DNA of 64,000 nt from Aphrocallistes beatrix. Taxonomy: Eukaryota; Porifera; Hexactinellida; Sceptrulophora; Aphrocallistidae. The stretch lies in contig OY725496.1 in assembly GCA_963281255.1 (NCBI GenBank), positions 3,821,723 through 3,885,722 on the forward strand. Direction: 5' to 3'. The first letter of the stretch is position 1. Every line of letters begins with the position of its first letter. Both the position numbers and the translations under genes were made by a program. Below, one piece after another: positions 25,328 through 63,611 of the stretch. Below the pieces are notes generated by a model, which was not told the origin of the DNA, did no database searches, and worked only from the letters and a program-made list of their open reading frames with translations.

Positions 25328-25330
25328 ATA

Positions 25331-43846: not shown

Positions 43847-46800
43847 TCAGGGTGGATTGGGTCTAGTCTGGCCTAGCTCGGCTAACTAGAGAAGAATTAA
43901 AATAAAGAATTTAGAAATCAAGGGATAAATAAAAGGAATAATGCTAGTTAAACAAATCTTAAATATTGATCCATATTCTAAAGATAAAGATATACATACT
44001 CGAATGAAGTTCTAGGATTATATAAGTGCATGACTAATTAGCATTTTGATCGTAATTTGATCATGATGGGATAATAAGAACGTAGATACCTCTTGTAAGA
44101 ATTTTTCTGGATTCACAAGATCTGTGCTTCCATAGATTATCTGTTTAGAACTGTGATTTCTCTAAATGATGTTATTATTAAAAAGTGTCGAAAAAAGATA
44201 TTCCAGTGGCTTCCATCTTTCTCATTCAGGAACCATCCAAACATTCCACAAATGAGCCACGATACCAAGTGATAGTCTGGCACAGTGAAATCGATCATAG
44301 TTAAAAAGACACAAGCGGCACAATTGTTTCGTGAGGTGTCGAATCGAAAATCGTATGGTAACTCCTTTTTTCCATACACCTTCATTTTCCTATATAAAGC
44401 TTTGCATCTGTACGAAGCTCCAACAGATTCAGTACAAAAAATAGTATGTAAGAATTTACCTTACAATAATCTCTGAGATTCTGATATTCTGTATAGTTCC
44501 CACCTCCTACAGTAAACACGACTGCCTAATGGAGAGTAGAACTTGTTAATAACCTACGAACGATTGTGGCTTACTGTGCCTTACAATTGCGTTGAATTAA
44601 CGATATTGCAGTGTTTAAAATCACAGTATTAATTTTAAAATGACCTTTCATATTTTATAGGCTACACGTGTAGCAACATATGTAGCTACTTGCAGAGGTG
44701 TGAAAATTTCGCTTAGATCTTAGAAATTAATCGTGGACTCATCATTTGACACCTACATGCCAATTCTTCAATCAATTCGGACAAACACAAAAAATATATA
44801 TAAGTTACATACATATGTAGCCACACGTGTTGCTACACATGTTGCAACACATGTTGCTACACGTGTTGCTACACATGTTGCAACACGTGTTGCAACACAT
44901 GTAGCAACACATGTAGCAACACGTGTTGCAACACATGTAGCAACACGTGTTGCAACACATGTAGCAACACATGTAGCAACACATGTAGCAACACGTGTTG
45001 TAGCTACACGTGTTGCAACACATGTAGCTTCCAACGGTTGACATGGGGTTTTTAGTGGTGTAGATTTCGAATATCATATTTTTAGATCTATATGATAAAT
45101 TATTTGTTTACTTTTGTTTACAATAGATATATAAAGTAAACAAATTACAAAAATATGCTAGAAACTTGCTTTCAACGGTTAACATGGGGTTTTCAGGGGT
45201 GTAGATTTCGAATATCATATTTTCAGATCGATATGATATTTTTTTTGTTTACTTTTGTTTACAATAGATACATAAAGTAAACAAATTACAAAAATAGGCT
45301 AGAGACTAGATTCCAACGGTTGACATGGGGTTTTTAGGGGTGTAGATTTCGAATATCATATTTTCAGATCGATATGATATTTTTTTTGTTTACTTTTGTT
45401 TACAATAGATACATAAAGTAAACAAATTACAAAAATAGGCTAGATACTAGATTCCAACGGTTGACATGGGATTTTTAGGGGTGTAGATTTCGAATATCAT
45501 ATTTTCAGATCGATATGATAAATTTTTTGTTTACTTTTGTTTACAATAGATACATAAAGTAAACAAATTACAAAAATAGGCTAGATACTAGATTCCAACG
45601 GTTGACATGGGTTTTTTAGGGGTGTAGATTTCGAATATCATATTTTCAGATCGATATGATATTTTTTTGTTTACTTTTGTTTACAATAGATACATAAAGT
45701 AAACAAATTACAAAATTAGGCTAGAGACTAGCTTCCAACGGTTGACATGGGGTTTTTATTGGTGTAGATTTCGAATATCATATTTTCAGATCGAAATGAT
45801 AAATTAATCGTATACTTTTGTTTACAATATTCATATAAAGTAAAAAATAGGTTAGATTGAGCAACTTCAGGCGCCCGCAGGGAGACTCTGCGGACACGCA
45901 GTGTCTGCAAGCCGCGCAGCGCAAGCAAGCGAAGTGCGCTTGTATATATATAAGATTACATACACACACATTAATCGAGTTTTACTAGTAAGGATTCGAA
46001 AACAGTAGGGTTTGGTTCCAATTCCAGGACTAATTAACCAAAATGATCCAAAGTGAATACTTCTAAATGCCGTCTGCCCTGACCGTCTTAAGTAAAAAGA
46101 AAATTGGAACTATTCATTATTTCCCAATCTTCACTAATATGTAACAAAATACAGAATCAAGGCTTGATATTCCTGATTGATTTACATTACTAACTAACGA
46201 TCCACTCCTCGCATCCATCTCCACAGCCGGGGTACCGACCTGAGTAGTATCACACCTATGGGTAGGAACAGAGGCACGTAGATGGCGTACTTCTGATCAT
46301 CTGGGAAATAGAGCAGCTTGATGATGCTAGGGTCGTAGTAAGCCTTCTCACTCTCCTCCCATCCTTCCTTGCACCTGCTGTGTGCAGTCTGTAGGTTCCC
46401 CTTCTTATACTCCTCTCTGCACAGCTCTAAGTGCGCCAGCGCACTCAGTGTAGCCTGCTGGATATCTGTGTTGATGAACATGTTCTGAGTCTCAGAGAGA
46501 GACTGGGTGAGGGCGTTTAGGCTCTTCTTCGCTGTGTTATGGTAGCAGTGTGTCTGCTTGTAAAACCAAGGATTCAGCTCAAGTTTGGTGAAGGTAGAAG
46601 TGGGATCAGAGAGCTCTATGTCGTTATTGATTATGTATGGAAACTTGAGCTCGAGTTTGAGATAGTGTATTACTGGTGATAGGATGGAAGTGTAGTTAGA
46701 TTCCATGTCACTCCCCGTCAACAGCAATGAACCCCAGTCTTCAACCATGGCGGAAAAGAAAATGTTATCAGTGCCATCTTCCTGTAGGTATAGGGGGAGG

Positions 46801-49800
46801 AATTCCTTCGTAGGGGTGTAGACTAGGAAATTGATCTTATGTCTCCGTGAGGTATACGAGTTCAGATTCGATTCAATGTTGTTCACAACTTGAGAAATGT
46901 TTCTCTGTGAAATGTAGAATCCATTTTTTCCACGATGTATGAATTCTGGAATCAGACTGAAATGGTAGATTTGAGAGTCTGTAGTTACGTTCAAGAACTC
47001 TCTAAGAGGGAGAATGCTGTGTTCGAAGAAAGCGTTCACATCGTCGTAGAAGGGAGGTATCATTGTGTCACGTGCCTCGAAAGGAAGTATAAAAGTAAAC
47101 GAGACCTGTACTCCGTGCACAGACGGGAAAAGACATTTTGAATGAAGTTTTCGACTGATCAAAGACTGAGTGTAATTTGAGAAAAATTGGAGTAATGCTT
47201 GTTTGGTTTCATCCCTCCAACACACATCCAAGCTAGAGGTTATAAGATATATTTTATCAGAAGATGAGCAGTGTTTGAGCAGTAGCATCATCTCATTAGG
47301 ATTGACTGATAAGGGTAGAGAGCTAGCGATCACTACTTCTAAGCTGATGTTGGAATAAGATCTTACTGAATCCCATATAAGGACCAAATCTTCTCGGAAT
47401 GAAATAACTTCTGCCTCAGGAATTAATTCCTGCTTTACGATAATAAACTTTAGTTTAAATTCCCTGTCCAGGTCAGGTAGATCTGAGATTTCTTTGTATG
47501 GCAAGGCAGCCCGTGGAATCTCTGTAGTCTTCCACCACACAGGAATTCCTATTGCTATGACGAATGTCAGGATGAGCAGAGCTGCTCGGTTCTGCTCAGC
47601 TTCGTTGCGAGACTCTACTCTCTTCTGTGTTTCCATTTCAAATAGCTAGGATGTCAGTACGCAAGGGAAATAACTAAATACGAAAGCATTGGCAAATAAA
47701 TTTCTAAATATTGGCGGTTTTCAAGTGTTGAGTGATAATTATATACCGGTATAGAACCTAATAAACTAGGTAGCTCTATGGGCGTAAAAACGAGTAAAAT
47801 CTCCGTAAACAGGCAATTACTTAAGATTATTTTGTAATTAGACTGACCTCTGTGAATGGAGTCGTTGCTCTGTGTCTAAAGTGAAGAATTAAGACAGATG
47901 AGACACACTAATCATGTCGAGTTTAGTTTCATTCCATAGCAATTGTAATGTTTAGTGTATTCAACCCGAGTTTTATAAAATAATTGATTGTAATAATAGT
48001 CAAGTGCAGAATTAAGTTTTTTTACAAATCAGAAATATACTAGTTGAGGATTACATTATTTTCTCCTCTTCTTTACCTGAGACGGCCTGCTGGGAGTAGC
48101 ACGGCGAGGACCTGTGCTCCTATAGGGCGCACCCCCTGGAACCCCGAAGGGAGATGGATTTATTTCTCCAGCTCCTTGGAATAGAGAAGTTTTTTGTGCT
48201 GTGCTCTGTCCGAAGTTGAAATTAAGTGGCACATTCGAAGCAAAATTTGTCCCTTGAGTGTTAGGCGTCTGTTTGAATGCGAAATTACCACTGGGGTTAG
48301 AGACGAGGCCGAGTTGTAAGGGAGATGTGGACTTGGAGGGCAGAGAGGAGGAGCTGGGCTCTGGAGAACTGAAGGCAGTGGCATGCTGGCGTTTGAAGAG
48401 ATTCGGGACTGGACTTTCGCTTGGCGCTGAGAAGGGTTGAGTTGTCTGAGTGGGAGTGGGAGTGGGAGGGGGGAAGATGGAACTGGAGCTGGTAGGGATG
48501 GAATAAGAGATCTCCAAGTTATGAAAAGGTTTGCTTGGTTTATCCATCGGTTTGTTGAAAAGAGAAAGGTTCGGAGTTTTGAAGATGTCTTGAGAAGATT
48601 GTGGGGCAAGACCTCTCTGTATGGGCGTGGAAGTGGTTTGGAAAAAAGAGCTGGAGGCGTTGCTAGAGGATTGTGGAATAGTGAGCTGTGGCTGGGAGGG
48701 TGAATTGGGAAGTTTAAAGAGACTGTGAGAAGACTGATTTGTAGTGTGTGGAGCGGGGAACATTGTCTGAGAAGTGAGAAGAGATTGTGGTTGTGTAGTA
48801 GGTTTCTTTTGCGACAAGAACGCGAATGGGGAATCTGACTGTTTCACAGCTGGAGGGAGTTCAGGGCGAGAAGGGACGCTAGAATCGGTGAGTAGAGGAG
48901 GTTGTGGTTTATTATCTGGGAGAATGGTGGGGTTTGGGGTTGGTTTAGGGAGAACGGAGAAGGCTTGCTGTGCTTGTGTTTTGGGAGGCCAGACAGAGGA
49001 GCTTACAATGGACGGTACCATGGGTGTACTTGTTTGAGTAGGGATAGAAAGGGCATGGGAAGTAGAGGGTAGAGAGAAGCTGATGGGCTGGGATACAGCA
49101 GCGAGGATGATTGAGATGTCCTTGGGAAGGGGAGGGGGCTTCGAGAGTAAGGCGGGAGGGAGGGTCCCCGTCTGTGTGCTAGAGGGGCCTGATAGGACAG
49201 GGGTGGACATGAGGCCCCCCTGTGGAGGGGAGACCGTTGTGAGGGCAGGAGTGCTGGGTTCTTGATTCTCGGAGGGCTGTGGGAGGGGAGGGGACCTGGA
49301 ATCAGGCGCGGGAGGAGAGGTGGATTCCTTTCGCGTCGGGAGGCAGAAGGATACGACCTTCTCCTGGGACTGAGACGAGAGGGGAGAATCGGAGACGGGG
49401 GTGTCTGGTCGTGTGCCAAACTTCTCTGTGGGAGTTTTGAGAATACCGGACGGTTTGTCTTTCGAGTCCTGCCACGACTTTAGCACCTTGTCCCCCTCCT
49501 CCTGACTGACACCCAGCACGTGACACATACTCTGGTAGCTCAGCATGAACTGGTGTCGTGTCACCTCTGCCACCTCCTCTTCAGTTAGAGTTACCGCGAG
49601 ACTGGAATCGGGTGTATGCTTTGAATTGTCCGCTTCTTTTTCATTCGATTCTGTCTCAGTACTGCTCCTAACTTCTGTCTTCTCTCTCGTCTCCGAATCT
49701 CCTGTCTTGTCAAGATCTGTTTCCTCAGAAAGACATTCTATCCCTGAAATCGAATTAGCAGTCGTTTGTAGGTCTGTTTCAGTGAAATTCTCCGAATAAT

Positions 49801-52800
49801 TTGATCGATTCAGTTTAGCTTCCATAATGATCAGTTCGTACTCTCTTGGATCGATATCGGAGTCATCGTCCAATATATACCGCCCTGAGGCGGTCTTCTG
49901 TTCGGTGGTAGGAGGGTCAGTTTTTGTATCAGGGTCTGGAGGGGGCGAGGAGTCTTTTGATGAGATTCTGGGAGGGGGAGACAGAGATTCAGGAGAGACT
50001 GTCGAAGTTTTGCTCTTCTTCGCTTCACTAACTGATTCTGTGTCATCTTCTTCTAAGAGGAATTGGCTTAGAGTTCGTTTCATTTTCATATCTTTTTGTT
50101 TCAACCTTTGCAAAAGCAGATCTGAGCTAGAATCCAAGTCTCTGCTCTCTCTGACTTGCTTCTGCTCCCTTTCAACAGCTTCTGCCTGCTGGGCTGTGTA
50201 CCAGGGGAGAGGGGCCATCTGCTTCTTGAACCCTTTCACTCTCTTGTCCCTGTTGGCAGGGTTGAGCAGGATGGAGGCGACCAGGGATACCGGACGTGAT
50301 GAACTCAGTGAAGACATTTGTACAAATATTATGGATAGGCTTCTAAGAGTTTTTGGAAAACTTTCTTGCAACACGAACTGTACTTGTGAGTGATTTGATA
50401 TGGGTAAGTATTAATAATATTATCCATAGTACACGTAGTCTTCAAACTATTCTAATCAACTTCGAATTAGGAGGTACTGGATAGAGAATTGCAGGAAATT
50501 AACTCGTTGATACTAATATATTTAGGTTCAATACGAATATATACGTACATGTATATAAATAAGTTATCATAATTTCATTTGAAAATTGTTTGCATCAAGA
50601 ATGTAAATAGATAAAGTGCAGCAAGCAATATCGTTATACTTACATTGAAGTAGGCCGCAGTTTAGGATCAAAATACTTGTAATCTTTGATTTCCTGTAAG
50701 AGATATAGATACATAAATATATATATTTACGGTGAACATGCTATCTTACAAACCGTATTCATTTTGTTCTCCATTAGTGAATCTGTTATTCTCGTCACTG
50801 GTAGATTCTGAAAACTCAATTAAGACAGTTGACATTGGTTTATTTGTATCAGCGAATAAAGGAATTACCTTGTCTCTTATTACAAGGTTCTTAACTCCTT
50901 CCGTCCACAGCTTGGAACCAGATGACACCAGCTTGGAGAACATGACACTATAGTTATATGAAAAGGTTAATTATTAAATATTCATATTATTGCGGGACGC
51001 ACTGATTAATTAAAATTACCTAACTGAACTGACAGTAGTCCCTCCTGCCAGTCCATCGACTACAGGTCCTGTCAGGAGTTTAGAGATCGACTTCCAGGAG
51101 TTGAGGTAGTTGAACAGACTGGTGCAGTGAGGGGAGTGTTGGAATGAAGGGAGATACATAGCTAAATCAGTCTGAAGAATGCAGTGAATCATTAAAAGAT
51201 CGCCAGTGTTAATAAAAAGAAAAAGTTGTTACGGCATTAAAATTTAAAACTTACCTGAGACATGTCTGGAGAAGAAATATATTGAATAGCGAGAAGCCTC
51301 AGCTTATCAATATCCAGTCCAGCTAATTATAAAAGAAAATTATCAATATGTGATTATAGAATAATGTATTAGTATCTGATACATGCAAATACACACCTTG
51401 TGGATTTCTGATCAGTTCAAGCACGCCTCTGTCCTAGAAATAATACCCGAATATGTTGAAAAGGATATAATTCATAATGATTCTTCATAACTTGATTTGT
51501 AAAGATAAATACCTACTCCTATAAATACGTATTGAGTACAGTACCCAGTAGTACCCCCCCCCCGTTCATCTGAACAATTTATTTTTAAAATTAAATAAAT
51601 AAATAAATGTTATTCGCTTTTTTGAATTATAACTTCTATCTTTTCATTCAATCGAAAAAACCGCGTTAAAATCAATCAAAATTATAATGACATCTCTAAT
51701 ATTGCAAATTTATGATCGTTAATTTCAAATTGAATGTTTTATTTTTCTCCGAACAAATTCACTAATCGGAACAGCTCGCCTTCACTCTACAGGACTGTTT
51801 GAATAAGGGAAGTTCTACTGTAATGGCAATGCATTGTTTAAGGAAAATCACAATTTATAAGCAACTTACTATTGTGGATCGTGTCATGATCTTCTCTTCA
51901 AGCTCAAAATACTCATCTAGCTTCCTTTCCTATAGGACGTACCAAAAGGGGAACTTCAGCAATTTAGGACATGCAATTGGGAGTTGAGGAGAAGGTTGGT
52001 GGTAGTCTCACCTTGATATGATCCAAGAGCGTCATGGCGATGTTGGTATGCATGTCAATGGATTTCTTCTTCTCCATCAAATCTGGTAAGGAGCTATTTG
52101 TATGCAGGATGAAGGATATTCAGCTTTGAAGGGTATACACAGACTACAGTACTGCTCTAGCATTACCTGATAGCAGAAGTCAGTTTCGCTGTGTTAGAAG
52201 CGACTGCACCGCTGATAATATCCGGATTGTCAGTGTCAGACAGACCCTATCGAGGAAGCATAGTACACTACATGCAGCTACATTCTGAATAACATGGACT
52301 CCATTACTGACCATCGCTTCCTTCAGTCTCTTCACTTCCCCTTCAGATGCTTTATAATCATCGAGTTCTGCTTGTATAGACTCGGCTACTGTTGGGAAGG
52401 GGCTGCGAAAGATATAAAAGGGGCCTAATTTTGAGAAAGTGAAATTCTAGAAGCAGAACTGAATTTCCCTTACCTTCCTCTAAATGAGCTCCAAAATGAG
52501 TCGGTAGACTGGAGGTCATATGTCTTGGCTTCTACAAGATTAGATCAGATCACTCAATTGCAATGCCTAGAACAATGATAGAGTGTCTGAGTTACCTACG
52601 CAAATATAACATCCTATTTGATCAGGCTACCTCAGCCAAGTATGGTAGGCCCTGAATTAATATCTTGAAATATTTAGCCTATTTAATGCTATGGAAATAT
52701 TTTCGATTCACATTACTAACACATTAATATTCCAACTCATTAAGTATGCAACTTCATTACATACTTAATGAGTTGAAATATGAATTGTTTAATTCAAATT

Positions 52801-55800
52801 TAGTTAATTTTCAAAGAATATTCAAATTATCCCACAATAAATTTTCGTACTAGCATTTTATCAGAAAAGTTATGTATCGTACCTTCAAAGGAAATAGCAT
52901 ACCTAAATGGCAATTGTTAAATACATAGTAGTCCTTAATAGATTTTCGACGGTTAACAAAGCAATTTGTATGTATTTTATTCACGCTTAATATGGGAATC
53001 CGTTTCAATTGCACAACATGATCAGAGTCAGCAGCTCAACATGTTTAGATATGTAATTGAACAGTCAAATTAAACAGTAAATACTTAAGATCATGATACA
53101 TGAACTCCTCGTATTAGATCAGGTGACGTCATTCTAGCACTCATTCTTCCTTATAAAAGCAAAATAAAATGCGTAATCTGCAACTAAAAAGAAGCATGGT
53201 GGTCTTCAAACAAATCAACAGATCCAGCTTGCTACTCATCGCATTGAACAGTTTATTCCTATTCGGGTACGTTTTATTTCCGCTGACGGTGAGGTCTTCC
53301 ATCTCATTGCAATATGAACTGGCTTTTATGTATCGAATCAACTTGCCGCTGTTCGGGAACCTGGACAACCCGTCTCAGTTCGGTCTACACAACAGCTACA
53401 GCCTCAAGATCACACACGACCTCTGCGAGAATATCGGGGCATGGCATATCTTGCCTCACAATTCTACCCTCGCGAATACGGACCCTGCTCATCCTAGATT
53501 CGGACGGTACGGGCCTGTGATCTTGTATAGCCATGGCAATGCGGGATCGCGAGCGCTGTACCATAGACTGGACAGCTACCAATTCATGGCGAGGAAAGGC
53601 TACGAAGTGGTAGCGTTTGACTACAGGGGCTATGCGGACAGTCCGGGGAGCGTGAGTGAGGTCGGAGTTGTCAATGATACCTTGAGTGTGTACAAGTTCG
53701 TATTGGAGCACTTAGAGCCTGGGGCGACGGTTTACCTGTGGGGACACTCCCTGGGCAGCGCGATAGTGATCCAAGCGATGCACAGGTTGCTAATAGAACA
53801 GCCGAAAGTGCAGGTACCAGACGGAGTTATTCTGGAATGTCCATTTTTAAACTTCTACGAGGCGGCCTACCACTACCCTCTGTTCTGGGTCTACAGGATC
53901 ATCCCTCCCTACTCCGACTGGCTGATGCGGGGTAGGATGATCGAGTTCGATTCCGATAACAAGATCCCACACTTGGCAGCAGAACTTCCGATTCTGATAG
54001 TACACGCTCAGTCTGACTTCGTTATCCCGCACTGGCAAGGAGAAGCGCTTTACCGAGTCGCCAACCTCAGCGGAGATATGCAGCTCGGTGTGCCCAAGTG
54101 TCTGAGGTTCGGCTCCCTCCCCAATACAGGACACAATGGGTGCGCCAGTTCAGTTGAGTTGGACGGACATCTGGATGAGTTCGTACTGAATTGTACCAAA
54201 TCCATCTAGCAGCAATGCCGACAGCCACTTGCTTAATCGTATCATATCGTTATGTGTTTAGTGCAAATTCAAATGTTTAATCATCAATTAGAGTATTTCT
54301 TAGAACGTTATCAGATATTATCCTGCCTTCATCTAGTTAGAATGTATTAACAAATCCAATATACTACACAGTATACTCTTCATTTGCTATGCGACAACTT
54401 AATATGTACTTAGAATTATGTAGATATTGGTGTGGCTGTATCTTATACTATACAACACATGCAATAAGGAAGCATATGTTACCTGTATCCGGACTCCGAA
54501 GTCGTGTTTCTGAATCTGGGGGCACCAAGACTCGGTTCAGTTTCAGATCCTAACGAGGAGAGATGAATAGAAGCCCCTTGCATAGCAATATAGAAATGCA
54601 CCACATAATATCAGGATACATTAAATTATAACACCCTAGTGGCCTTACCAATAAGTCATGTGTGAGTGCCTGGTAGGTCCATGTGTGATGGAGAGGAGTA
54701 GCGAGGTCTATTTGTCTGTCGAGAATGACCAGCAAAGGACGATTGAAACTACAGATTAGTGAGGATAATAAATGACACTGACTTGTGATAGTGGAATATC
54801 TTTATATTTATAACCTCAGCTGTGAAAAGTTCTGAAAGTTAGGCATGAATAGGTTATTATTCATATCGCTCAGATTTTCTCGCATCTTCTTATCCAGACT
54901 CTAGAAAATTAGACAAAATCCTATCTCCAAATTATAACATTCAGCTCAGCACGGCAGAACTGTAATGGAAATGATGGAATGTAGAATGAAACTTAAAATA
55001 ATAAAATAAAAAGTGCTCACCTCTGCCACTAACTCAGCTGCGTTAGAAGGGGAACATCGGATAATGGGAACCACGCCTATATGAGTGGATGAGAGCTTTA
55101 CCTGATGAATGAATTGGGCCTGTAATTGACGTAACTCATCCAACTCACTAACCTAAGTTGACGAATACTGAGAATAGCGAGTCAGCTATGCTCTCTATAA
55201 TGGAGATCACCTCAGTCTCACTTGCTGAAGACTTGTTAAGGGCTAGAGGAAATGTGTCACTCCAAGATGAAGGAATCACAGGCGTATAGACTCGTATACA
55301 ATATACACGACAAATCAATACAACTAATTTCTTCTCGAATAATCACACCTTGATAAGAGATGAGGTCCGATTGGTACTCTCTGAGAATGAACATGTCATC
55401 TTCAATAGCAATGAAGTTCAAAAACTGATCCACAACCTGTAATGAGGTGATAATAAATTCGCACATTTCTTCTAGTATTTACAAAATAAAATATGCCATA
55501 TGGAACAATCGATAATTTGTGAATTATGGCGGAAAGATGTGATGACATATATAGATGCTTCTTAGAGTATTAAATATTTGACAATTGTAACTATGCAAGT
55601 GAGAAAATACACAATTATGAGGTAAGGCACCATCATACGCGGATCCAGGGGGGGCCCAGGGGGCCTGGGCCCCCCCTTCGAGGACTAGCCTAATGCACTC
55701 GTTCTCGTAGTAGTATATTCCTTGTTACATATTTGGGGGCCCCATTTTCTTTAGGCCAATCTAGAAAGGCTTCTACCAGAAAACGCAGTAAAAGGAGTTC

Positions 55801-58800
55801 CTTCAAACACGATAACTGGGCTTAAGGAGGCATTTTCTAGTGATCTTCCAGCTGCAGAATCCTTCCAACAAGAAGTGGAAAGGTGGGTAATGCGATGGAA
55901 AGCTAGTGAAAGTCTACCCCAATCTCTGTCCGACACGTATCTTGCTACTAACTGTCACCTCTATCCCAATATATCGTGCATTTTACACCTTTTGTTAGTA
56001 GCACCAGTGACATCTGCTACTGTTGAGAGGGCCAATTCTGCCCTGGCATATGTAAAGACGGAACTCCGTAGCTCAATGGGTGAAGAACGATTAAATGATT
56101 TAATTCTTCTTTATGTCCACAAAGACATTAATCTCACGTATTCTGAGATTGTAGATCGGTTTGCCATCAAAAGACCACGCTTGATGAAGTTAAGAAATCT
56201 ATTAGATAACGCAGGTGATGAGACTGAGTGCTAGCCATCAGCAGCTGCTAGTTTTCAGTAGTGGTAATACAGTGGCACAGTATTACATACTAAAAAATAT
56301 TATGAATCTTAGTATAGTGTATGCAAATGGTCATTCGATATGGGTTTTAATATAATTATTCAAAAAATTTTCTGGGGGGAAACCCACCAGACCCCCCCAA
56401 AAGTCGCTCGTTCCACTCGCTTTGGGCCCCCCCTTTCTTGAAATCCTGGATCCGCCCCTGGGGACCATCATAATGAAAAGGCTGATTGTTCAAATTTCCA
56501 AAGCGTAAAACAGCGTCATAAGAATTTTCTTCCTGTATTTGACGTTATGTGTCACGATGTTGAATTTAAATTTAGAGTCTGCATGTTTTTGCATGTTAAA
56601 TGAACTGATAACATATATTATTTGAAAAATCAATAGAAGTTTTCTACAAATACAACTAGGATAAAATAAGAATTTCATATTTCAACTCGACTGCACATTT
56701 TTTTAAGTTTTGTAGGAATATCCCTATAAAAAAGTTGAAAGAAATTTATCTAATATAAATTCCAAAATATTTATATATGATGTGGCATATTACTGCATAG
56801 CTTATCCACTGTATTTGATTTTATTGAATATTGATTTCTGTTTTGTACAGCAAATTTTACTCTCTTTTTTGTAAAAGTATTATTTGAATAAATTTGATTG
56901 GTATTTATCAAAATTTCAATTTACAGTTAAAACAACAAAATACGATATTCACTATGCAGAGGAAGGGAGAGCTGAGTCCTGTTCAGAAGATCTGAGAGGA
57001 GTGAAGGCCATCTTAATCGTTTTATGAACTCGGCCTATCCACTTCCGCGTCACCTTAGATAGAGTAGTCCAAGAGAAGCCAAGCTCGAAGCAGAGTAAGC
57101 AAAAAGGCCAGATTAGAAGAGGCAGGTAGGAGATATTCAGCACTCTGAGGCTTCTGTCTAATCTGTAGATATGTTCTGAATCTAGAGACACGCCGCTATT
57201 GCTGTTGTACCTTATGGAGATAGCTAGGTAGAATAAGTTGTCTGGGCTTGCTAAGACAAACTCGTGATTCTTCACGATCATGGAAATACTGAGGAGGAGA
57301 TCGAGTAATAGTGAGCCTAAAACGAAGAATACAAACATCTTATTCATGTAAACGGCGAGGGGTTTGTACCAAATGGCATTCGATACTCCCACTGACTTCT
57401 CTACTCTCTTGATAATTATTATGAGGAGAGCGGTGAGAATTATGATCGAAGCGTTGAGAAAACAGAGAGGAAGAATTAACAGAAACAGCAATCCATTCAA
57501 CTTCTTAGGGAGTGGGAGGAATGTGAGCATTGAGTACCCGTTTAAGAATATCATGTTGATAGAGGGAAGTAAAAGAGAGACCAATAAGGCGATTACAAGT
57601 TTACTAAAGCCCGCGCAACATTCGTTTAGAGGAGATCGGACCGATGGGAAGAGAAGAATGTATATAACGTGTGAAAGGTGGCAGTTAAGCCACAAGAAAA
57701 ACCCAATCAATTGGAAGTGTAGACAGAATCCAATCAATTGTTCATACCACCTCGTGTCCTGTAGTATGAGGTGATCAATCTTGTGGTAGGCCGCTATGAT
57801 GAACAGGATGCTGAGTAAGATAGAAGTGAAAATAATGACAATGAGTGCTAGGAACACACTTCTCCATAAGGTGCGGTAAGTTATCCAGATAATTAAGAGA
57901 AAAATATTTATCAGAAGAAACACAATAGCACTGAAAAGAGATGAAATTCTCCACTCCGGTGAATTTGTGTAATCTGGTAGCTGACAGAAATCGTTCAAGA
58001 TGAGTGGGTAAGGACAAGTTTGGATGGAAATATTTTTATGAATGATTTCGTACAATGTATCATTCGAGACCAGATCTGTAATCAGTTGAGGCTTGAAATT
58101 CAAGACCAATAACGGTGTAATTGTTAGCAGCAGTATAAACACAACAAATATCACCAAAGTGACGAAAATGAAAGAATTTCTCAATTTCATATTATCAAAA
58201 TGTAAATTGTATCCTTTAGTAATGTCTTATATTAGTACTTATAGACTTACTATTAAGATAGTATGTATAAGGATGGGAGTAATGCCAATGTATTGTATAG
58301 TTGGCCACTAACTTGTGAGGGGGAATTCATGCAAGACTATTGTATTGATTCCAACTATTGCTTCAGATGAATAATATGGCTGTAAACCAGTCTCTACCAT
58401 CCTATCTTATTCATCTAAGATCCCGTGCTTGACAACTGCATGAATGAGTTAATTGTTTTTGTTCAAATCAACTGCCATGCCATATCATTATATATTCTAC
58501 TCAACTCATTATCATTATCAAGAAAAAGTACAACTAGTTATTTTCAAAAACTTGGCAAATAGTTCATATGTGGGTGAATATATATATATATACGTATATA
58601 TATATATATATATATATATGATACCCACAAAGATTATGTTAACTCAATAGTAATTCCATACAATAGAGTATTAGAAAACTATTTTTAAATCAATGTTTTA
58701 ATGTTTCAGATGAGTATACAAGTACAAGTGTAAGCTAGCTTCGTTTGCAAATTGCACAGATACAATGTAACGTCTGACATAATAATATACGTACTGCAGT

Positions 58801-61800
58801 AGTAGTAACATTTAGCATTGTTATAAATGTACCTTTGCTATGATTTCTGTGTTTCCCGACTGGCAAACTGCGAGAGCTATTTGTTCTAACTTTTCTCTTG
58901 AAATGGCAGTTAGGAAATTTAAATAAAAGGTTCCATAAGTCTGTTGCTTAATATCCTAAAATAAAGTTTAACAATTAATAATCAATCCATGGTTCAGTTC
59001 ATGTTAATCCATCCAATTAAGATATACCTGACATATTCTGTGTATATTTTCTTCTGTGGGGAGTAGGAAATAGACAGCAGGTGCTTCGGTAATGGAATCT
59101 CTCTTTGTATGTAGAGGTCTGGTAAAGGTAAAGAGGATACTGTTGAGAAAAATACTGTCGGCAGTACTAGCATATTGCATTATCATCATGTATAAGCGCG
59201 CTTCGTGCCCGCAGGGTCGTGTCTAATGGTTGTAGCTTAACATCTCGAGTTATAATTATGCTTGCTCGAGCCAGTGACAAAGTACTCGAGTGTGCCTAAA
59301 ATAAACTTTCTACGACAGAAAATTTCTTCAATCAATCGCTACATAAGCATAGATATAGTTTCTACATACATACAGCATGTCTCATAATTATTTAGAATTT
59401 TCCAACAGGATTATTTCCAATAAAGCACAACTACAATGTTTAAATTTATTGGCCTTGATGTTTCGGTACATCAAAATTAATATTTTATTTTATAACTGTG
59501 ACTGTCTATCAAATTTTGGCATCTCTTGGACATTGACTTCCAGTAGGGCTCGAGGAAAAACGTATCGATAGTATTCCAAACTGAGCCACTTCATTTCGAG
59601 AGCATTTAGATGCTTTGATAGGGAATTTATTTTTAAAAAATATCAAAAAATCTCCCCTATTTCCCAACAAACCAAAAATGCTCCCAATCGATCCTCAATT
59701 CAATAATTAAAAAATTCACAAATTAAAAACCATTCTTCCTCTAGATCCAAAATGATAATTCAACCTTATTCCAGTTTAAACAATTCGGCCTTATTCTGCT
59801 TTCCCAATAAGATCAAACACATAATATAGTTTGTTTTTACCTAATAGTAGAATATATTAATAAATAGGTTCTAGCAACACTATTTACAAATCGAATATTA
59901 CTGGGGGGGGGGGGTGAGCATATATGAAGGCAGCCTAAAGTTCACAAATACTACAAGTAAATCACAGGTTTATATACTGATTTACTGATGGAACTCCTTC
60001 ACCACTTCATCAATACAAGTAGCAAGATCCTTGAAAAATACCTCAAACCTTTCTTCAGTCACATGAGGACACACTACTATATGAGACATTCTTCCCAAAT
60101 GGAGATCATTATAACTCGCTAGAACATATTTTGCCCTGATGAATTTGGGTAATTCGGGTGTGCAAATGATCAGAGAAGCGGGGTTGATAAACGTCTGTAT
60201 TCCTACTTGATGGAATCGATCTTCAGCAAATTTGACGTTCTTTTGACAAGTATTATACTCTACTTGCCAATCGAACTGTAAGTATCGAATCATCCATGTT
60301 AAAGCATTAAAACCTTTTCGAGTGCTAACAATTCCTATGTCTTGACACATCAAATATTCTCTAAAACCTTCAACTTGAAACTGAGCTTTTTCCTGAAACA
60401 TTGCAAATAACCCACACACATCACAACCATGCCATTTGTAACCACTAATCGCTATAGAATTGAATTCAACTCCTATTTTGTATTTAGGGTTATGTTTATC
60501 CAAGTGCCAAAAGCCTCCATTAAAGGCAGCATCGACATGTATGAATATCTTCTCTCTAGTCAAACCGATGCTATAGAGAGTATCCAGAATCAAAGTGATG
60601 TTGTCACAAGCTCCTTTCATGGTAGTTCCCAATGTGGCTATGACAATCACTGGAGGGATATCTTGAGGCGAAGGTTTTTGGCCAATAATGTATTTCACTG
60701 CTGGGATAATTTGTTTGTAGTCGATCTCTCCATTACGTAAAGTCGGTATCTGTAAGCAGGCACGTAAGCTTTCTTTTGTCAATTCAATCGCCTTCTCAAC
60801 CGAAAAATGTGATTCAATTGAGTATAAAAGTATTGGTTTCACTCCTGGAAATGCTTTGATGCCGAATTTGAATCCAGCAAGATTCCCTTCTGTACCACCA
60901 CTCGTGATATATGCCCATGTGTTCTCTTTGTTGCCGCCCCAAGGACCGATCAATTCTAAAATTAATTCGCTCTCCTCCTCTAAACTAGAAATCATATCGA
61001 CAGTTTCATAATTCAAACTTTGACCTGTATTTTTTATTATTGGTAAAGTTTTGCCAATTTGGAATTTTGCTTCATTTAATGTCTGTAGATCTTTGAAATT
61101 TGCTGGGTAGCCAAATTCTTGTTGAAGTGTATGCAAATTGCTATATTTTATTTGCAATTTATTTATATACTTTTCAATCTCAGTATTTTGCATAATTACT
61201 GTTATACGCGTAGTTTTAAGTAATATTTATGATTTGATTTTGTAAGTCCATTTAAATAGTGTACAGTGTGTTAATTGAGTTGTTAAAACCCTTGCATGCC
61301 TATAGTCAAAGTGAAAGTAAATTGAAAGTGAAAGTGAAAATGAAAATGGGGTCATTTCTATTTATACCTTTGACCCCACAGGCATTGCCAGGTTAAGTAT
61401 TGTCTTTCAATTTAAAAGTAAGATATAATTTCATATTACAAGAAATCATTGGCTATGCATCTACAATATCAATTTCAGGGGTTAGGAGGAAGTACACTGC
61501 AGGTGTCAAAATTTCAAAATAGACATAAAAGCACACTTTGGGAAAAATGATTTTGAAATTTGTAGTTCGGTACCAAAAAGTCGCTTGAGACGCCAAAATT
61601 CCACTCGGTTCAATAGCTTTGGAGTATTTTTTTACAAAATTCTTAAATCCTTTCAACTATCATAATTCAAAAGTATTGAAAGTTTGTAAAGTCTCCAGTT
61701 TAAAACAATATTGACCTAAAATATTTTTGAAGTAGGAATAAGAACTAAAATTGGAGGGAGAGCGAAAGTGAGCATTTTAGGTTTGAAATAGTGTCAAATT

Positions 61801-63611
61801 GAGTGTGAAAGTGGCATTTATATTCGTGAGGGGGTACTGTGTGGCATTTTAGGTCTTAATCCTACTTAGCAGCTTTTAGGTCTTATTCCTACTTCAAATT
61901 AGGTCTTATTCCGGCGATTCATATACATACACATTAATCGAGTTTTAAAATAATAATATGTAACTCAATATCTTGATTTAGAATCAATAGGACAGTCTCC
62001 TGTAATTGGGAGATTGTAGTTGGAAATTGCACTTGTATTTGATGCTTGATAGACTTCTATTTGACTTAATATTATTCCTAACTAATATTTCAAGTAAGGT
62101 AGAGGATGCAGGAAGGTTCTGTGACTTCTGTCGCTCGAGACTACAATAATATTACCAAAGTACAAAAATCTAATTGTCAATGGGGGGCTAAACCTGGAAT
62201 GTTACAAGCACCAAAGTCTCTAGCTTTAGAAATGAAGTCAGGGGATATCTACATAGCGGATGCGCTCAATTCGAGGATCCAGGTTTTTGACAGAAATCTG
62301 GACTATTCATTTCATTTTCCAACACAAGACTTTAAATACCCGTGGGGAATATGTATCAAAGATTATCTCGTATTCACAACTCAAAAGAATGACAATAAAA
62401 TAAAAATATTCCACCTGGATGGAACTTACATCACAGGAAGAGAGAATTCTGAATCGATGGTGAAATACAATGCTGAGGAACCAATGGGAATAGCAGTGGA
62501 TTATGACAACTCTACGTTTATTTGCGACTCTGGGAACAGGCGCATCTTAGTGCTCCAACCTACTCTACCAATTGTTACTGACCTTCAAATTGGAGATGTG
62601 GTGCCAGTAGATGTCAAAATGCACAGACACCATTTGGTTGTCTTGACAACCAATAATCTAACATCCGGAAACGTAGGCTGTCATTGTAGCATTAAAATCT
62701 TATTTCGTTCAGGAGAATTCTTTAAAGAAATAAAATTATCCGAAGTTATTTCCAAGAGTCCGCAATTCTTAGCCATAGACCGTTTTGACAATCTATTTGT
62801 CACCAGTCCAGAGCTCGGAGGATCCAACATTTCGCGCACTGGAGTTATCTATATTTATGGTTGGGATGGAAAACTGATCAAGAAGCTAGCGAATCTGTTC
62901 AAGAATATAAAGGGAATTGCTGTCGATAAGAACTGCAACATAATCAACGTCTGTGAGATAGATGTAGGGAGGCTGAAAATATTGTGAGTGTGTGCTCACG
63001 AGAAGTCAATAAAATGAATTGTACTTTTTGTTAATAATTAGCTTGTCTGAAACACATTTTATTATTTATTATTTATCATGTTCAAATTGTGTTAATAAAC
63101 GTTAGGTTTGTAGAGGCAAGTCTAGTTAACACAGCAGAAACTCGCAAAACTGGGCACTTTTCCGGTTTGAGAGTCTCTACTGTAAAATTTAGATACATTA
63201 TATTTAATCAATTTATTGATAAAATGCTCAAAAAAATTAAGAAGAAAAACTTACAAATGTAAAGTGACTCCGAGATCTCTAAGCTGCTTCACAGATAACA
63301 GCGGAGATATGATGTCCTGACCCAGTCTATCGTAAACCAACACCTAGAGCATACACCAATGTTCACACAGATATTGAAATCAATTTAGACCCTTCCGAGT
63401 TGATCTTTCTAAATCGGTTGGTGGAAGAGGACAAACACACAAGAAACACAACTATTCATTGGAACGAAGAGACCGTGAAAACGGTCAGACTGGTCGGATC
63501 ATCATTTCCTGAATGCAAAATAAATTAGTCTTTGTGCTACCTTCCAGATAGGCTGAGATAGGACTGAGGCATCCGATTTCTCATTTAAATTCAGCATTTG
63601 TTTGAGTGTTT
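43847..63611 (-). CDS. SCFD1: SLY1/SCFD1, Sec1/Munc18-family ER-Golgi fusion factor, host of six nested genes
   Basis: 25 minus-strand exons: 63541-63611, 63255-63343, 59028-59118, 58833-58955, 55349-55436, 55153-55242, 55021-55076, 54815-54900, 54649-54748, 54483-54549, 52474-52531, 52312-52402, 52167-52246, 52012-52093, 51870-51929, 51397-51433, 51255-51322, 51020-51171, 50869-50947, 50754-50807, 50644-50693, 47848-47875, 44460-44525, 44090-44161 and 43847-43885. Phases agree at every junction, giving about 625 residues; human SCFD1 has about 642. SLY1 binds syntaxin-5-type SNAREs. Diagnostic blocks are YDRLGQDIISPLLSVK, APAVYFLLPTEENI, DRQIDLATPLHHTWTYQAL, EGVKNLV, NLPVTRITD, YFDPKLR and VGGGNYTEYQNL. 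The first coding exon was not fixed; an in-frame ATG at 63631-63633 is one option. The large introns hold other genes. Confidence 0.92.
44694..44785 (+). repeat. end module of GC-hairpin element
   Basis: GAGGTGTGAAAATTTCGCTT through TTCTTCAATCAATTCGGAC matches the module at 29232-29345. It opens the repeat block in the SLY1 intron 44526-47847. Confidence 0.75.
44817..45028. repeat. 12-bp palindrome-rich tandem repeat
   Basis: About seventeen units of the form ACACGTGTTGCA or ACACATGTAGCA. ACACGTGT and ACATGT are palindromes and TTGCAA links units, so each strand reads almost alike. Open frames on both strands (VATHVATR-type peptides) are by-products of the period and should not be called genes. 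Confidence 0.95.
45029..45800 (-). repeat. 140-bp satellite array (locus B), inverted relative to locus A
   Basis: Six monomers; CAACGGTT recurs at about 45032, 45173, 45314, 45455, 45596 and 45736, 140-141 bp apart. Each holds GGGGTGTAGATTTCGAATAT, the reverse complement of the locus A motif. The unit includes GTTTACTTTTG...AAAGTAAAC, a small hairpin. Locus B monomers share variants not seen at locus A. Confidence 0.92.
45867..45995 (-). repeat. GC-rich hairpin element copy with terminal module
   Basis: Minus-strand copy of the hairpin (CAAGCGCACTTCGCTTGC start on the minus strand; stems GACAC/GTGTC and CCGCAG/CTGCGG). Next to it, at 45969-45995, is ATTAATCGAGTTTTACTAGT, the same terminal module that ends the 25331-25879 element. 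Together with 44694-45866 it may form one composite element of about 1.3 kb. Confidence 0.8.
46194..47636 (-). CDS. PIGS: PIG-S, GPI transamidase subunit, nested in a SLY1 intron
   Basis: Single-exon frame of 480 residues on the same strand as its host. PIG-S belongs to the ER complex that attaches GPI anchors to proteins. The N-terminal membrane segment (about 20-36) ends in the conserved VWWKTTEIPRAALPY, and a large luminal domain follows. A second membrane segment lies at the C-terminus after LLYFPDDQKYAIYVPLFLPI, the usual two-pass layout. VEDWGSLLL and NPWFYKQTHCYHNTAKKSL also fit the family. It lies in the 3.3-kb intron 44526-47847, beside the locus B satellite array. Confidence 0.93.
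   Translation of the reverse strand: METQKRVESRNEAEQNRAALLILTFVIAIGIPVWWKTTEIPRAALPYKEISDLPDLDREFKLKFIIVKQELIPEAEVISFREDLVLIWDSVRSYSNISLEVVIASSLPLSVNPNEMMLLLKHCSSSDKIYLITSSLDVCWRDETKQALLQFFSNYTQSLISRKLHSKCLFPSVHGVQVSFTFILPFEARDTMIPPFYDDVNAFFEHSILPLREFLNVTTDSQIYHFSLIPEFIHRGKNGFYISQRNISQVVNNIESNLNSYTSRRHKINFLVYTPTKEFLPLYLQEDGTDNIFFSAMVEDWGSLLLTGSDMESNYTSILSPVIHYLKLELKFPYIINNDIELSDPTSTFTKLELNPWFYKQTHCYHNTAKKSLNALTQSLSETQNMFINTDIQQATLSALAHLELCREEYKKGNLQTAHSRCKEGWEESEKAYYDPSIIKLLYFPDDQKYAIYVPLFLPIGVILLRSVPRLWRWMRGVDR
48056..50374 (-). CDS. FG/SP-rich nucleoporin-like protein, nested in a SLY1 intron
   Basis: Single-exon frame of 772 residues; the second ATG (50317) gives 753 and may be the real start. 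The first 100 residues are charged and helical (RDKRVKGFKKQMAPLPWYTAQQAEAVEREQ). Acidic and Ser/Pro-rich segments follow. From about 480 there are scattered hydrophobic FG-like patches (FAFLSQ, SLFKLP, NFNFGQ, SPFGVPGG), and the end is strongly basic (PSQVKKRRK). This resembles the FG tails of Nup153 or POM121, but there is no membrane segment or zinc finger, so the assignment is tentative. Overlapping frames on both strands are compositional shadows. It lies in intron 47876-50643, on the host strand. Confidence 0.65.
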   Translation of the reverse strand: MLQESFPKTLRSLSIIFVQMSSLSSSRPVSLVASILLNPANRDKRVKGFKKQMAPLPWYTAQQAEAVEREQKQVRESRDLDSSSDLLLQRLKQKDMKMKRTLSQFLLEEDDTESVSEAKKSKTSTVSPESLSPPPRISSKDSSPPPDPDTKTDPPTTEQKTASGRYILDDDSDIDPREYELIIMEAKLNRSNYSENFTETDLQTTANSISGIECLSEETDLDKTGDSETREKTEVRSSTETESNEKEADNSKHTPDSSLAVTLTEEEVAEVTRHQFMLSYQSMCHVLGVSQEEGDKVLKSWQDSKDKPSGILKTPTEKFGTRPDTPVSDSPLSSQSQEKVVSFCLPTRKESTSPPAPDSRSPPLPQPSENQEPSTPALTTVSPPQGGLMSTPVLSGPSSTQTGTLPPALLSKPPPLPKDISIILAAVSQPISFSLPSTSHALSIPTQTSTPMVPSIVSSSVWPPKTQAQQAFSVLPKPTPNPTILPDNKPQPPLLTDSSVPSRPELPPAVKQSDSPFAFLSQKKPTTQPQSLLTSQTMFPAPHTTNQSSHSLFKLPNSPSQPQLTIPQSSSNASSSFFQTTSTPIQRGLAPQSSQDIFKTPNLSLFNKPMDKPSKPFHNLEISYSIPTSSSSIFPPPTPTPTQTTQPFSAPSESPVPNLFKRQHATAFSSPEPSSSSLPSKSTSPLQLGLVSNPSGNFAFKQTPNTQGTNFASNVPLNFNFGQSTAQKTSLFQGAGEINPSPFGVPGGAPYRSTGPRRATPSRPSQVKKRRK
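51551..51610. repeat. poly-C and (AAAT)n tracts
   Basis: A run of C (about 51552-51562) and an AAAT run (51590-51607) in the SLY1 intron 51434-51869. The rest of that intron is AT-rich and featureless. Confidence 0.8.
52728..52780. repeat. perfect 16-bp-stem hairpin
   Basis: CAACTCATTAAGTATG (52732-52747) is repeated exactly inverted at 52759-52774, with an 11-base loop. The pairing extends outwards with one mismatch. It lies in the SLY1 intron 52532-54482, upstream of ABHD12. It may be a tiny hairpin MITE or an RNA structure. Confidence 0.85.
53169..54209 (+). CDS. ABHD12: ABHD12-like serine hydrolase, nested in a SLY1 intron
   Basis: Single-exon frame of 346 residues opposite in strand to SLY1. 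The N-terminal membrane anchor (about 19-40) is followed by an alpha/beta hydrolase fold. YSHGNAGSR (120-128) forms the oxyanion region, GHSLGS places the nucleophile at S194, HAQSD the acid at D283, and NTGHNG the base at H322. ABHD12 hydrolyses lysophosphatidylserine and monoacylglycerols on ER membranes; FDYRGYADSPG and ECPFLN match it. ABHD13 or other members are less likely. The gene lies entirely within the 1.95-kb intron 52532-54482. Confidence 0.9.
   Translation: MRNLQLKRSMVVFKQINRSSLLLIALNSLFLFGYVLFPLTVRSSISLQYELAFMYRINLPLFGNLDNPSQFGLHNSYSLKITHDLCENIGAWHILPHNSTLANTDPAHPRFGRYGPVILYSHGNAGSRALYHRLDSYQFMARKGYEVVAFDYRGYADSPGSVSEVGVVNDTLSVYKFVLEHLEPGATVYLWGHSLGSAIVIQAMHRLLIEQPKVQVPDGVILECPFLNFYEAAYHYPLFWVYRIIPPYSDWLMRGRMIEFDSDNKIPHLAAELPILIVHAQSDFVIPHWQGEALYRVANLSGDMQLGVPKCLRFGSLPNTGHNGCASSVELDGHLDEFVLNCTKSI
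55634..56460 (+). mobile_element. hAT transposon, internally deleted copy, in a SLY1 intron
   Basis: 827 bp. The right end reads CAGGGGCGGATCCAGG outwards-in; the left end has CATACGCGGATCCAGG, differing at three bases. Flanks GGCACCAT and GGGACCAT form an 8-bp target duplication with one mismatch. G-runs and C-runs lie just inside both ends. The interior codes only the transposase C-terminus. Confidence 0.9.
55755..56234 (+). pseudogene. hAT transposase C-terminal fragment
   Basis: An open frame of 159 codons, starting after an in-frame stop (or a CTTTAG splice acceptor), encodes the hAT dimerisation region. PVTSATVERANSALAYVK and ELRSSMGEERLNDLILLYVH are the family signature; the type resembles zinc-finger-MYM-like hAT transposases. 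The DNA-binding and most catalytic parts are absent, so it cannot mobilise itself. Confidence 0.88.
56952..58190 (-). CDS. 7TM-like orphan membrane protein, nested in a SLY1 intron
   Basis: Single-exon frame of 412 residues. A first hydrophobic stretch (about 7-33) may be a signal peptide. A short presumed outside region (34-82) has two Cys (C59, C68) and N-x-S/T sites. Then come about seven membrane segments near 85-107, 113-137, 155-180, 197-219, 235-262, 286-308 and 355-377, and a basic, Ser-rich tail. This matches a receptor-like 7TM layout, but no DRY, NPxxY or Frizzled motif was seen, so no family is assigned. It is on the host strand in intron 55437-58832, next to the hAT relic. Confidence 0.7.
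   Translation of the reverse strand: MKLRNSFIFVTLVIFVVFILLLTITPLLVLNFKPQLITDLVSNDTLYEIIHKNISIQTCPYPLILNDFCQLPDYTNSPEWRISSLFSAIVFLLINIFLLIIWITYRTLWRSVFLALIVIIFTSILLSILFIIAAYHKIDHLILQDTRWYEQLIGFCLHFQLIGFFLWLNCHLSHVIYILLFPSVRSPLNECCAGFSKLVIALLVSLLLPSINMIFLNGYSMLTFLPLPKKLNGLLFLLILPLCFLNASIIILTALLIIIIKRVEKSVGVSNAIWYKPLAVYMNKMFVFFVLGSLLLDLLLSISMIVKNHEFVLASPDNLFYLAISIRYNSNSGVSLDSEHIYRLDRSLRVLNISYLPLLIWPFCLLCFELGFSWTTLSKVTRKWIGRVHKTIKMAFTPLRSSEQDSALPSSA
58577..58620. repeat. (TA)n microsatellite
   Basis: TA run with one CG interruption in the SLY1 intron between its exons 4 and 5. No other feature is nearby. Confidence 0.9.
59193..59350 (+). repeat. short, internally deleted GC-hairpin element
   Basis: Starts AAGCGCGCTTCG and jumps straight to TGCCCGCAGGG, lacking the central stem, then ends with TTCTTCAATCAATCG near 59325. 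It lies just upstream of SLY1 exon 59028-59118, inside the intron. Confidence 0.7.
59982..61193 (-). CDS. PLP-dependent group II decarboxylase, bacterial histidine/serine-decarboxylase type
   Basis: Single-exon frame of 403 residues on the SLY1 strand. Motifs for the pyridoxal phosphate site are intact: TSGGTEGN (97-104), the stacking His in ESHFSVEKA (H129), HVDAAF with D221, and the Schiff-base Lys in SGYKWHG (K253). Length and NGEIDY, LGTTMKGACDNI and STRKGFNAL resemble the compact PLP histidine decarboxylases of bacteria and the plant serine decarboxylases. They do not resemble the longer animal HDC/AADC family. Substrate is unproven: histidine, serine or another amino acid. The lack of introns and the family suggest horizontal transfer. 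It shares intron 59119-63254 with the NHL gene. Confidence 0.85.
   Translation of the reverse strand: MQNTEIEKYINKLQIKYSNLHTLQQEFGYPANFKDLQTLNEAKFQIGKTLPIIKNTGQSLNYETVDMISSLEEESELILELIGPWGGNKENTWAYITSGGTEGNLAGFKFGIKAFPGVKPILLYSIESHFSVEKAIELTKESLRACLQIPTLRNGEIDYKQIIPAVKYIIGQKPSPQDIPPVIVIATLGTTMKGACDNITLILDTLYSIGLTREKIFIHVDAAFNGGFWHLDKHNPKYKIGVEFNSIAISGYKWHGCDVCGLFAMFQEKAQFQVEGFREYLMCQDIGIVSTRKGFNALTWMIRYLQFDWQVEYNTCQKNVKFAEDRFHQVGIQTFINPASLIICTPELPKFIRAKYVLASYNDLHLGRMSHIVVCPHVTEERFEVFFKDLATCIDEVVKEFHQ
61690..61955. repeat. inverted and direct repeat block ending in the terminal module
   Basis: GAAGTAGGAATAAGAAC (near 61728) recurs inverted as GTCTTATTCCTACTTC (near 61881), and AGGTCTTA(A/T)TCC appears three times. 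The block ends with CATTAATCGAGTTTTAAAAT at about 61931, the terminal module of the GC-hairpin family. It is a probable decayed element in the SLY1 intron. Confidence 0.55.
62106..62987 (+). CDS. NHL-repeat beta-propeller protein, nested in a SLY1 intron
   Basis: Single-exon frame of 293 residues opposite in strand to SLY1. It is made of NHL-type repeats: LQAPKSLALEMKSGDIYIAD then NSRIQVFD, EEPMGIAVDYDNSTFICD then NRRILVLQ, and SPQFLAIDRFDNLFVTS. These should form most of a six-bladed propeller, a binding platform. There is no RING, B-box or signal peptide, so it is a propeller-only protein unlike TRIM2/3 or BRAT. Partner and role are unknown. An AATAAA at 63008-63013 could end its transcript. 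It shares the 4.1-kb intron with the decarboxylase. Confidence 0.8.
   Translation: MQEGSVTSVARDYNNITKVQKSNCQWGAKPGMLQAPKSLALEMKSGDIYIADALNSRIQVFDRNLDYSFHFPTQDFKYPWGICIKDYLVFTTQKNDNKIKIFHLDGTYITGRENSESMVKYNAEEPMGIAVDYDNSTFICDSGNRRILVLQPTLPIVTDLQIGDVVPVDVKMHRHHLVVLTTNNLTSGNVGCHCSIKILFRSGEFFKEIKLSEVISKSPQFLAIDRFDNLFVTSPELGGSNISRTGVIYIYGWDGKLIKKLANLFKNIKGIAVDKNCNIINVCEIDVGRLKIL

What the first reader, a model, noticed from the sequence alone, without database searches (positions are those of the whole stretch)
43847..63611. SLY1 as a gene nest: six genes, a transposon and a satellite array inside one host
The 25-exon SLY1 model continues in phase across PIG-S, the FG gene, ABHD12, the 7TM gene, the decarboxylase and the NHL gene. 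All six lie wholly in introns: four on the host strand, two opposite. Same-strand nested genes need their transcripts to end without cutting the host pre-mRNA. Nested genes are known in animals, and many are reported in ctenophores, but six in one gene is extreme.
Basis: partly seen in the sequence, partly recalled or inferred. Interest (0 to 1): 0.9.

Follow-up and report, generated by a model that had tools for sequence, protein, structure and literature searches.

The report
Sponge gene with six genes inside
A glass-sponge gene for a membrane-trafficking protein (SLY1) carries six complete, unrelated, intron-free reading frames inside its introns; the arrangement looks real and at least one of the six is shared with another glass sponge, but gene-in-gene nesting is already known to be common in these animals.

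Summary
Confirmed: 25 coding exons on the minus strand (63611 to 43847) join in phase through 24 GT-AG introns into SLY1/SCFD1 (624 aa after one correction). Six open single-exon frames lie wholly in five of those introns, four on the host strand and two opposite, with a hAT remnant and a satellite-bearing repeat. The five gene-bearing introns are 1,951-4,136 nt; the other 19 are 60-436 nt.

New: a 417-aa database protein from contigs of at most 2,743 nt is 100% identical to exons 8-25, which span 11,054 nt of genome. Read as spliced RNA, it crosses the hydrolase, FG and PIG-S introns. In Oopsacas minuta the PIG-S model ends in SLY1's last three exons, on a contig of the same length as SLY1's.

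Corrected: the animal is a glass sponge, not a ctenophore. A. vastus has 2,432 published nested genes, so six in a 24-intron host is a tail case (0.012 or less by crude Poisson), not a new kind. Separate expression of the nested genes is unshown; no record identical to PIG-S or the decarboxylase was listed.

The parts
43847..63611 (-). Host gene SLY1/SCFD1 (Sec1/Munc18 family), 25 coding exons, 24 introns, 19,765 bp, 1,877 nt of CDS; an upstream exon or trans-spliced leader not found
63541..63611 (-). SLY1 first recognised coding exon; the Met that begins the Oopsacas model lies in it
50644..50693 (-). SLY1 exon 21, 50 nt; the Oopsacas gene model LOD99_343 stops at the end of this exon
47848..47875 (-). 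SLY1 microexon 22, 28 nt, between the FG gene and PIG-S
   Evidence: joined in P0122
43847..44525 (-). SLY1 exons 23-25 (44525-44460, 44161-44090, 43885-43847) with the two introns between them
62106..62987 (+). Nested gene 1: NHL-repeat protein, 293 aa, single exon, intron 2, opposite the host
   Evidence: Pfam PF01436 E 1.1e-9; position
59982..61193 (-). Nested gene 2: PLP-dependent (histidine-decarboxylase-like) decarboxylase, 403 aa, single exon, intron 2, host strand
   Evidence: PF00282 E 3e-11; relatives; PDB serine and histidine decarboxylases
56952..58190 (-).
   Evidence: no Pfam, NCBIfam or PDB match; low-confidence helical model; narrow frame preference
53169..54209 (+).
   Evidence: PF12146 E 2e-15
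48056..50317 (-). Nested gene 5: 753-aa Ser/Pro-rich protein with few FG motifs, family unidentified, single exon, intron 21, host strand
   Evidence: open frame and codon score; start codon; no Pfam, PDB or NCBIfam match
46194..47636 (-). Nested gene 6: PIG-S (GPI transamidase subunit), 480 aa, single exon, intron 22, host strand; nest apparently shared with Oopsacas minuta
   Evidence: PF10510 E 5.1e-58; PDB 7wld_S E 7.8e-40
55629..56471 (.). hAT transposon remnant in intron 4, coordinates include the 8-bp target duplications ATGATGGT; dimerisation-domain fragment on + strand
44695..45995 (.). Satellite-bearing repeat in intron 22: 12-bp array 44811-45025, 141-bp array 45025-45848, and flanks that match pieces of 25.3-29.4 kb

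Best explanation
This is one SLY1 gene of a glass sponge (Hexactinellida) whose introns have taken in complete, intron-free genes one after another. Shown: the spliced frame; six open frames inside introns; and, if P0122 is RNA-derived as its contig length implies, removal of the hydrolase, FG and PIG-S introns from a SLY1 transcript. Also shown: an Oopsacas minuta gene model that runs from PIG-S into the same SLY1 exons. Inferred: each nested gene has its own promoter and poly(A) site, the host pre-mRNA is transcribed through all of them, and each gene-bearing intron is spliced out whole. Inferred history: PIG-S is an old resident, nested before the window's lineage split from Oopsacas. The decarboxylase is a recent arrival, a copy of a family with three other members of 89-90% identity on a contig of 1,110,297 bp, probably in the same genome. 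In this host every long intron carries a gene; the rest are tiny.
For: Frame and splice sites; SLY1 identity. P0122, 417 aa from contigs of at most 2,743 nt, is 100% identical from exon 8 to the stop, against 11,054 nt of genome. Oopsacas SLY1 model P0121 ends at exon 21; PIG-S model P0245 ends in SLY1 exons 23-25 (48 of 57 residues identical); both are listed on a contig of 1,926,057 bp. A PIG-S tree puts the window outside the other five close sequences, support 99/98. 5 of 24 introns exceed 500 nt and 5 of those 5 hold nested frames; the other 19 are 60-436 nt. Decarboxylase copies P0001-P0003.
Against: No separate transcript was seen for any nested gene; only PIG-S and the decarboxylase were searched for, and nothing closer than 54% and 90% identity was listed, although an identical SLY1 record was. 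Three of six frames have codon scores below zero. No AATAAA or ATTAAA lies within 500 nt after the FG stop. Introns 2 and 4 are joined by homology and phase only, not by RNA. FG and 7TM match no known family. That P0122 is RNA-derived, and that one scaffold holds both Oopsacas genes, rest on listed contig lengths; I saw neither contig. A processed SLY1 copy could also give P0122. A single Oopsacas model supports the shared nest.
Confidence: 0.85

Rival explanations
1. The nest is real as DNA, but some of the six frames are silent duplicates or decaying insertions carried passively in introns, so fewer than six are working genes. This does not exclude the best explanation's anatomy, only its claim of six working genes.
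For: The decarboxylase is one of several near-identical copies. FG and 7TM have no family match; codon scores are below zero for NHL, decarboxylase and 7TM. No identical record for PIG-S or decarboxylase was listed.
Against: All six frames are open, each with a chance of 10^-6.9 or less. PIG-S appears conserved in place, and the decarboxylase keeps the lysine-bearing stretch of its relatives (that this is the PLP lysine is recalled).
Confidence: 0.3
2. Host and parallel nested genes work as an operon-like unit: nested messages are released from the host pre-mRNA by spliced-leader trans-splicing and internal polyadenylation.
For: A. vastus long reads carry a roughly 37-bp trans-spliced leader (PMC10282587, section 2.1 read). 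SLY1 itself begins at a good acceptor with no local first exon found.
Against: The best acceptor within 100 nt upstream of each of the six start codons is ordinary, reached by 9-66% of 7,834 AGs in the window. Leaders were predicted on only 4% of A. vastus reads.
Confidence: 0.08
3. SLY1 is two genes: one ending at exon 21 and a separate downstream unit, such as a PIG-S-SLY1 tail fusion, as the Oopsacas annotation implies.
For: Deposited Oopsacas models split this way. In the window, too, the splice 46235 to exon 23 would be in frame and give the same RSAVVF junction, so a minor fusion transcript is not excluded. A better donor (7.1) lies 4 nt upstream, but out of frame.
Against: P0122 joins exons 8-25 in one frame. 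Four of four other close PIG-S proteins keep their own C-terminus. The in-frame donor in the window is weak, 0.5 against 3.5-11.3 for the 24 true donors.
Confidence: 0.03

Closest known systems
Nested genes of the glass sponge Aphrocallistes vastus (PMC10282587; section 2.1 read, other passages seen)
   Same: Same animal class; short introns, 19,578 genes, 12,409 single-exon transcripts, 2,432 nested genes; glassin is nested in both A. vastus and O. minuta.
   Different: In the passages I saw, no count of nested genes per host is given, and the word sly1 occurs 0 times in the main text. Here six sit in one 19.8-kb host.
Nested intronic genes of the ctenophore Hormiphora californensis (PMC8527503; passages seen)
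   Same: Parallel nested genes are reported as common; several per host (four in the legend of Figure 4).
   Different: Another phylum; 2,357 nested genes in 1,654 hosts, about 1.4 per host; 484 are doubly nested, none noticed here.
Mouse H13/Mcts2 host/nested pair (PMC13309782, abstract read)
   Same: An active nested gene inside a host intron; shows that nested transcription can stop the host early.
   Different: One nested gene at an imprinted locus; no such regulation is known here.
Drosophila tim2-2mit (PMC3786989, passages seen)
   Same: A nested gene kept in its host over a long time.
   Different: One nested gene, opposite strand.

Membership tests
[quoted passage not shown]
   6 of 6 ORFs
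[quoted passage not shown]
   No RNA reads available; 180-2,987 nt lie between each ORF and the host exons
[quoted passage not shown]
   3 of 5 gene-bearing introns (10, 21, 22) through P0122, taken as RNA-derived; introns 2 and 4 by homology and phase only
SLY1/SCFD1 (Sec1/Munc18) | Near full-length match to solved Sly1 | tested here: met
   1mqs, residues 18-635 of 640, E 2.4e-84
PIG-S | Pfam PF10510 above cut-off over the protein | tested here: met
   197.7 bits against 26, residues 23-475 of 480
Histidine decarboxylase (NCBIfam NF002748 equivalog) | Score above curated cut-off 305 | tested here: not met
   198.4 bits; the wider PLP-decarboxylase domain PF00282 is met
ABHD12 | Orthology to ABHD12 rather than another alpha/beta hydrolase | tested here: inconclusive
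   Only general hydrolase families and other hydrolases in the PDB matched
FG nucleoporin | Match to a known nucleoporin family | tested here: not met
   No Pfam, PDB or NCBIfam match
hAT transposon | hAT dimerisation domain and 8-bp target duplication | tested here: met
   PF05699 E 7e-9; ATGATGGT on both sides; that 8 bp is the hAT length is recalled

The most novel reading that the evidence does not exclude
SLY1 is a long-lived docking site. Its introns have gathered six foreign genes, PIG-S possibly since before the deepest glass-sponge split and others more recently. Host and nested genes are expressed together through host splicing with leader-assisted release of the parallel ones, an operon-like nest in an animal.
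Probability: 0.07. Interest if true: 0.8.

Novelty: new member of a known kind. Interest (0 to 1): 0.45.

Why it matters
It is a compact, checkable case of how a small animal genome packs genes: the nested coding DNA (8,079 bp) is 4.3 times the host's own (1,877 bp). It also shows how automatic annotation can break such loci: the deposited Oopsacas models cut SLY1 at exon 21 and run PIG-S into its tail. One resident looks shared by two glass-sponge lineages and another looks recent, so the order in which genes entered one host gene could be read by comparing species.

Tried and rejected
First SLY1 exon: between the upstream frame's stop (63857) and 63611 I found by eye no start codon with a phase-1 donor that avoids a stop; no systematic scan was run. 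The acceptor at 63611 is good, so the 5' end is left open.

Trans-splicing of the nested genes: tested by scoring acceptors upstream of the six start codons; no support.

Nested state as proof of retroposition: not claimed. Close PIG-S and decarboxylase relatives are complete single proteins on long contigs, hence apparently intron-free elsewhere too (inferred), so lack of introns does not date the insertions. Poly(A) tails or target duplications around the nested genes were not looked for systematically.

Structure of the 7TM protein: mean pLDDT 53.2, pTM 0.35, too poor for a fold search, which I did not run.

Non-coding genes: no tRNA and no Rfam match at gathering score in the window.

Own genome: the genome search was unanswered at eight of eight tries, so no second SLY1 copy, no upstream sequence and no genome-wide nest count could be had.

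Literature: searches (the last with SLY1 and SCFD1 as terms). By title and abstract start, none of the listed papers describes this SLY1 nest or a record number of nested genes per host; most listed papers were not opened. Two reviews tried by id are not held.

A slip: the FG protein sent to Pfam, and the first CDS total, began at 50314, one codon after the Met at 50317; searches used 50317.

Full report
What is there. On the minus strand, 25 exons from 63611 to 43847 join in phase through 24 GT-AG introns with no internal stop. With exon 6 corrected to begin at 55242 the protein is 624 aa. The 640-aa first version matches yeast Sly1 over residues 18-635 (E 2.4e-84) and the SCFD1 fragment 1y9j over residues 2-131. 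Against the Oopsacas and Nematostella proteins its extra 16 residues stand out as an insertion, which is why exon 6 was changed.

The six nested frames. NHL (62106-62987, +) and the PLP decarboxylase (59982-61193, -) are in intron 2; the 7TM protein (56952-58190, -) in intron 4; the hydrolase (53169-54209, +) in intron 10; FG (48056-50317, -) in intron 21; PIG-S (46194-47636, -) in intron 22. Pfam names four of six (NHL, decarboxylase, hydrolase, PIG-S); FG and 7TM have no match in Pfam, NCBIfam or the PDB. Each of the six is open far beyond chance and scores best in its own frame of six, narrowly so for 7TM; NHL, decarboxylase and 7TM still score below zero against intron composition. The five gene-bearing introns measure 1,951-4,136 nt; the other 19 measure 60-436 nt.

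Transcript evidence. The protein search with SLY1 (120 of 1,347 matches listed; only the 7,994 candidates sharing most words were scored) returned P0122: 417 aa, on two contigs of at most 2,743 nt, source marked lgn, 100% identical to the model from a Met in exon 8 to the stop. Exons 8-25 take 11,054 nt of genome. So it can only come from spliced RNA or a processed copy; I take it as RNA. It joins exons across the hydrolase, FG and PIG-S introns, including the 28-nt microexon. It does not cover introns 2 and 4.

Conservation. The best named relative of SLY1 is Oopsacas minuta LOD99_343 (P0121), whose model stops at the end of exon 21. The best named relative of PIG-S is an Oopsacas model (P0245) whose last 59 residues replace the PIG-S tail; 57 of them align to SLY1 exons 23-25 with 48 identical. 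Both are listed with a contig of 1,926,057 bp. Four of four further close PIG-S proteins, from unnamed ENA entries, keep a normal tail, and the matching donor in the window is weak (0.5), so I read the fusion as an annotation error. Against that reading, the same splice would be in frame in the window too, and a better but out-of-frame donor (7.1) lies 4 nt upstream, so a minor real fusion transcript is not excluded. Either way the model places PIG-S before SLY1 exon 23 in Oopsacas. In a tree of 11 PIG-S sequences (10 of the 120 listed plus the window) the window falls outside a group of the other five close sequences (99/98), so the nest predates that split if it arose once. Only Oopsacas is named among those five; that the rest are glass sponges is inferred from their closeness.

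A younger resident. The decarboxylase has three relatives of 89-90% identity, each listed with a contig of 1,110,297 bp, while the next are at 59% or less (120 of 201 listed). The four form one clade (100/100; 27 of the 120 listed plus the window). I infer recent copies in the same genome. The two named Oopsacas relatives are listed with contigs of 28,536 and 1,373,672 bp, not the SLY1 scaffold. The nearest named non-sponge protein is from a Bdellovibrionales bacterium at 37%, which hints at an old transfer from bacteria but was not tested further.

Which animal. The window is from a glass sponge, not a ctenophore: the nearest named relative is Oopsacas in three of three searches. It is 51-54% identical in PIG-S to Oopsacas and the four unnamed sequences, which are 62-84% identical to each other, so it is none of those five. 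Whether it is A. vastus cannot be told.

How unusual. A. vastus has 19,578 genes, 12,409 single-exon transcripts and 2,432 nested genes (PMC10282587, section read). With 1.59 introns per gene as in O. minuta (PMC10280926, passage seen), a 24-intron host would hold 1.9 nested genes on average, and six or more with probability 0.012; with 2.5 introns per gene 0.0015, with 3.5 0.00026. On one A. vastus scaffold the ratio is 806 introns to 544 genes, 1.48 (PMC10282587, passage). Introns differ in length, so this is crude. In Hormiphora 1,654 hosts hold 2,357 nested genes (PMC8527503, passages seen). Six is a tail case of a known pattern. Six of six being single-exon has probability 0.065 if the single-exon share is 12,409 of 19,578, so it needs no special cause.

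How it most likely works. The host is transcribed through all residents and each gene-bearing intron is removed whole (supported by P0122 for three of five such introns). The residents are expected to have their own promoters and ends (inferred). Upstream acceptors give no sign of trans-splicing. AATAAA or ATTAAA lies within 500 nt after the stop in five of six, not after FG. Nested genes can cut host transcripts short in mammals (PMC13309782, abstract; PMC3192792, passages), so interference is possible here.

Results against. No record identical to PIG-S or the decarboxylase was listed, though one was for SLY1; the other four nested genes were not searched in that database. The first exon is missing. 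The genome itself could not be searched.

Noticed in passing
window 25324-29354 and 44695-45995: A composite repeat: 140/141-bp satellite arrays, a short 10- or 12-bp tandem array beside them, and shared flanks. The 'satellite array' in the SLY1 intron looks like part of a dispersed, possibly mobile, repeat rather than a lone satellite.
   Followed up: partly
Oopsacas minuta proteins P0121 (LOD99_343) and P0245: Deposited models look wrong: SLY1 is cut at exon 21 and its last exons are attached to PIG-S.
   Followed up: yes
window 59982-61193 and P0001-P0023: Its close decarboxylase relatives fall in two clades, each with one named Oopsacas protein and otherwise unnamed; the nearest named outsider is bacterial. 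Possibly an ancient transfer followed by expansion.
   Followed up: partly
window 63857-64000: A same-strand open frame ends at 63857, 245 nt before the first SLY1 exon. If SLY1's missing first exon lies beyond it, this would be a seventh nested gene.
   Followed up: partly
window 15516-16653: G-protein alpha subunit in two frames, apparently split by one short intron.
   Followed up: partly
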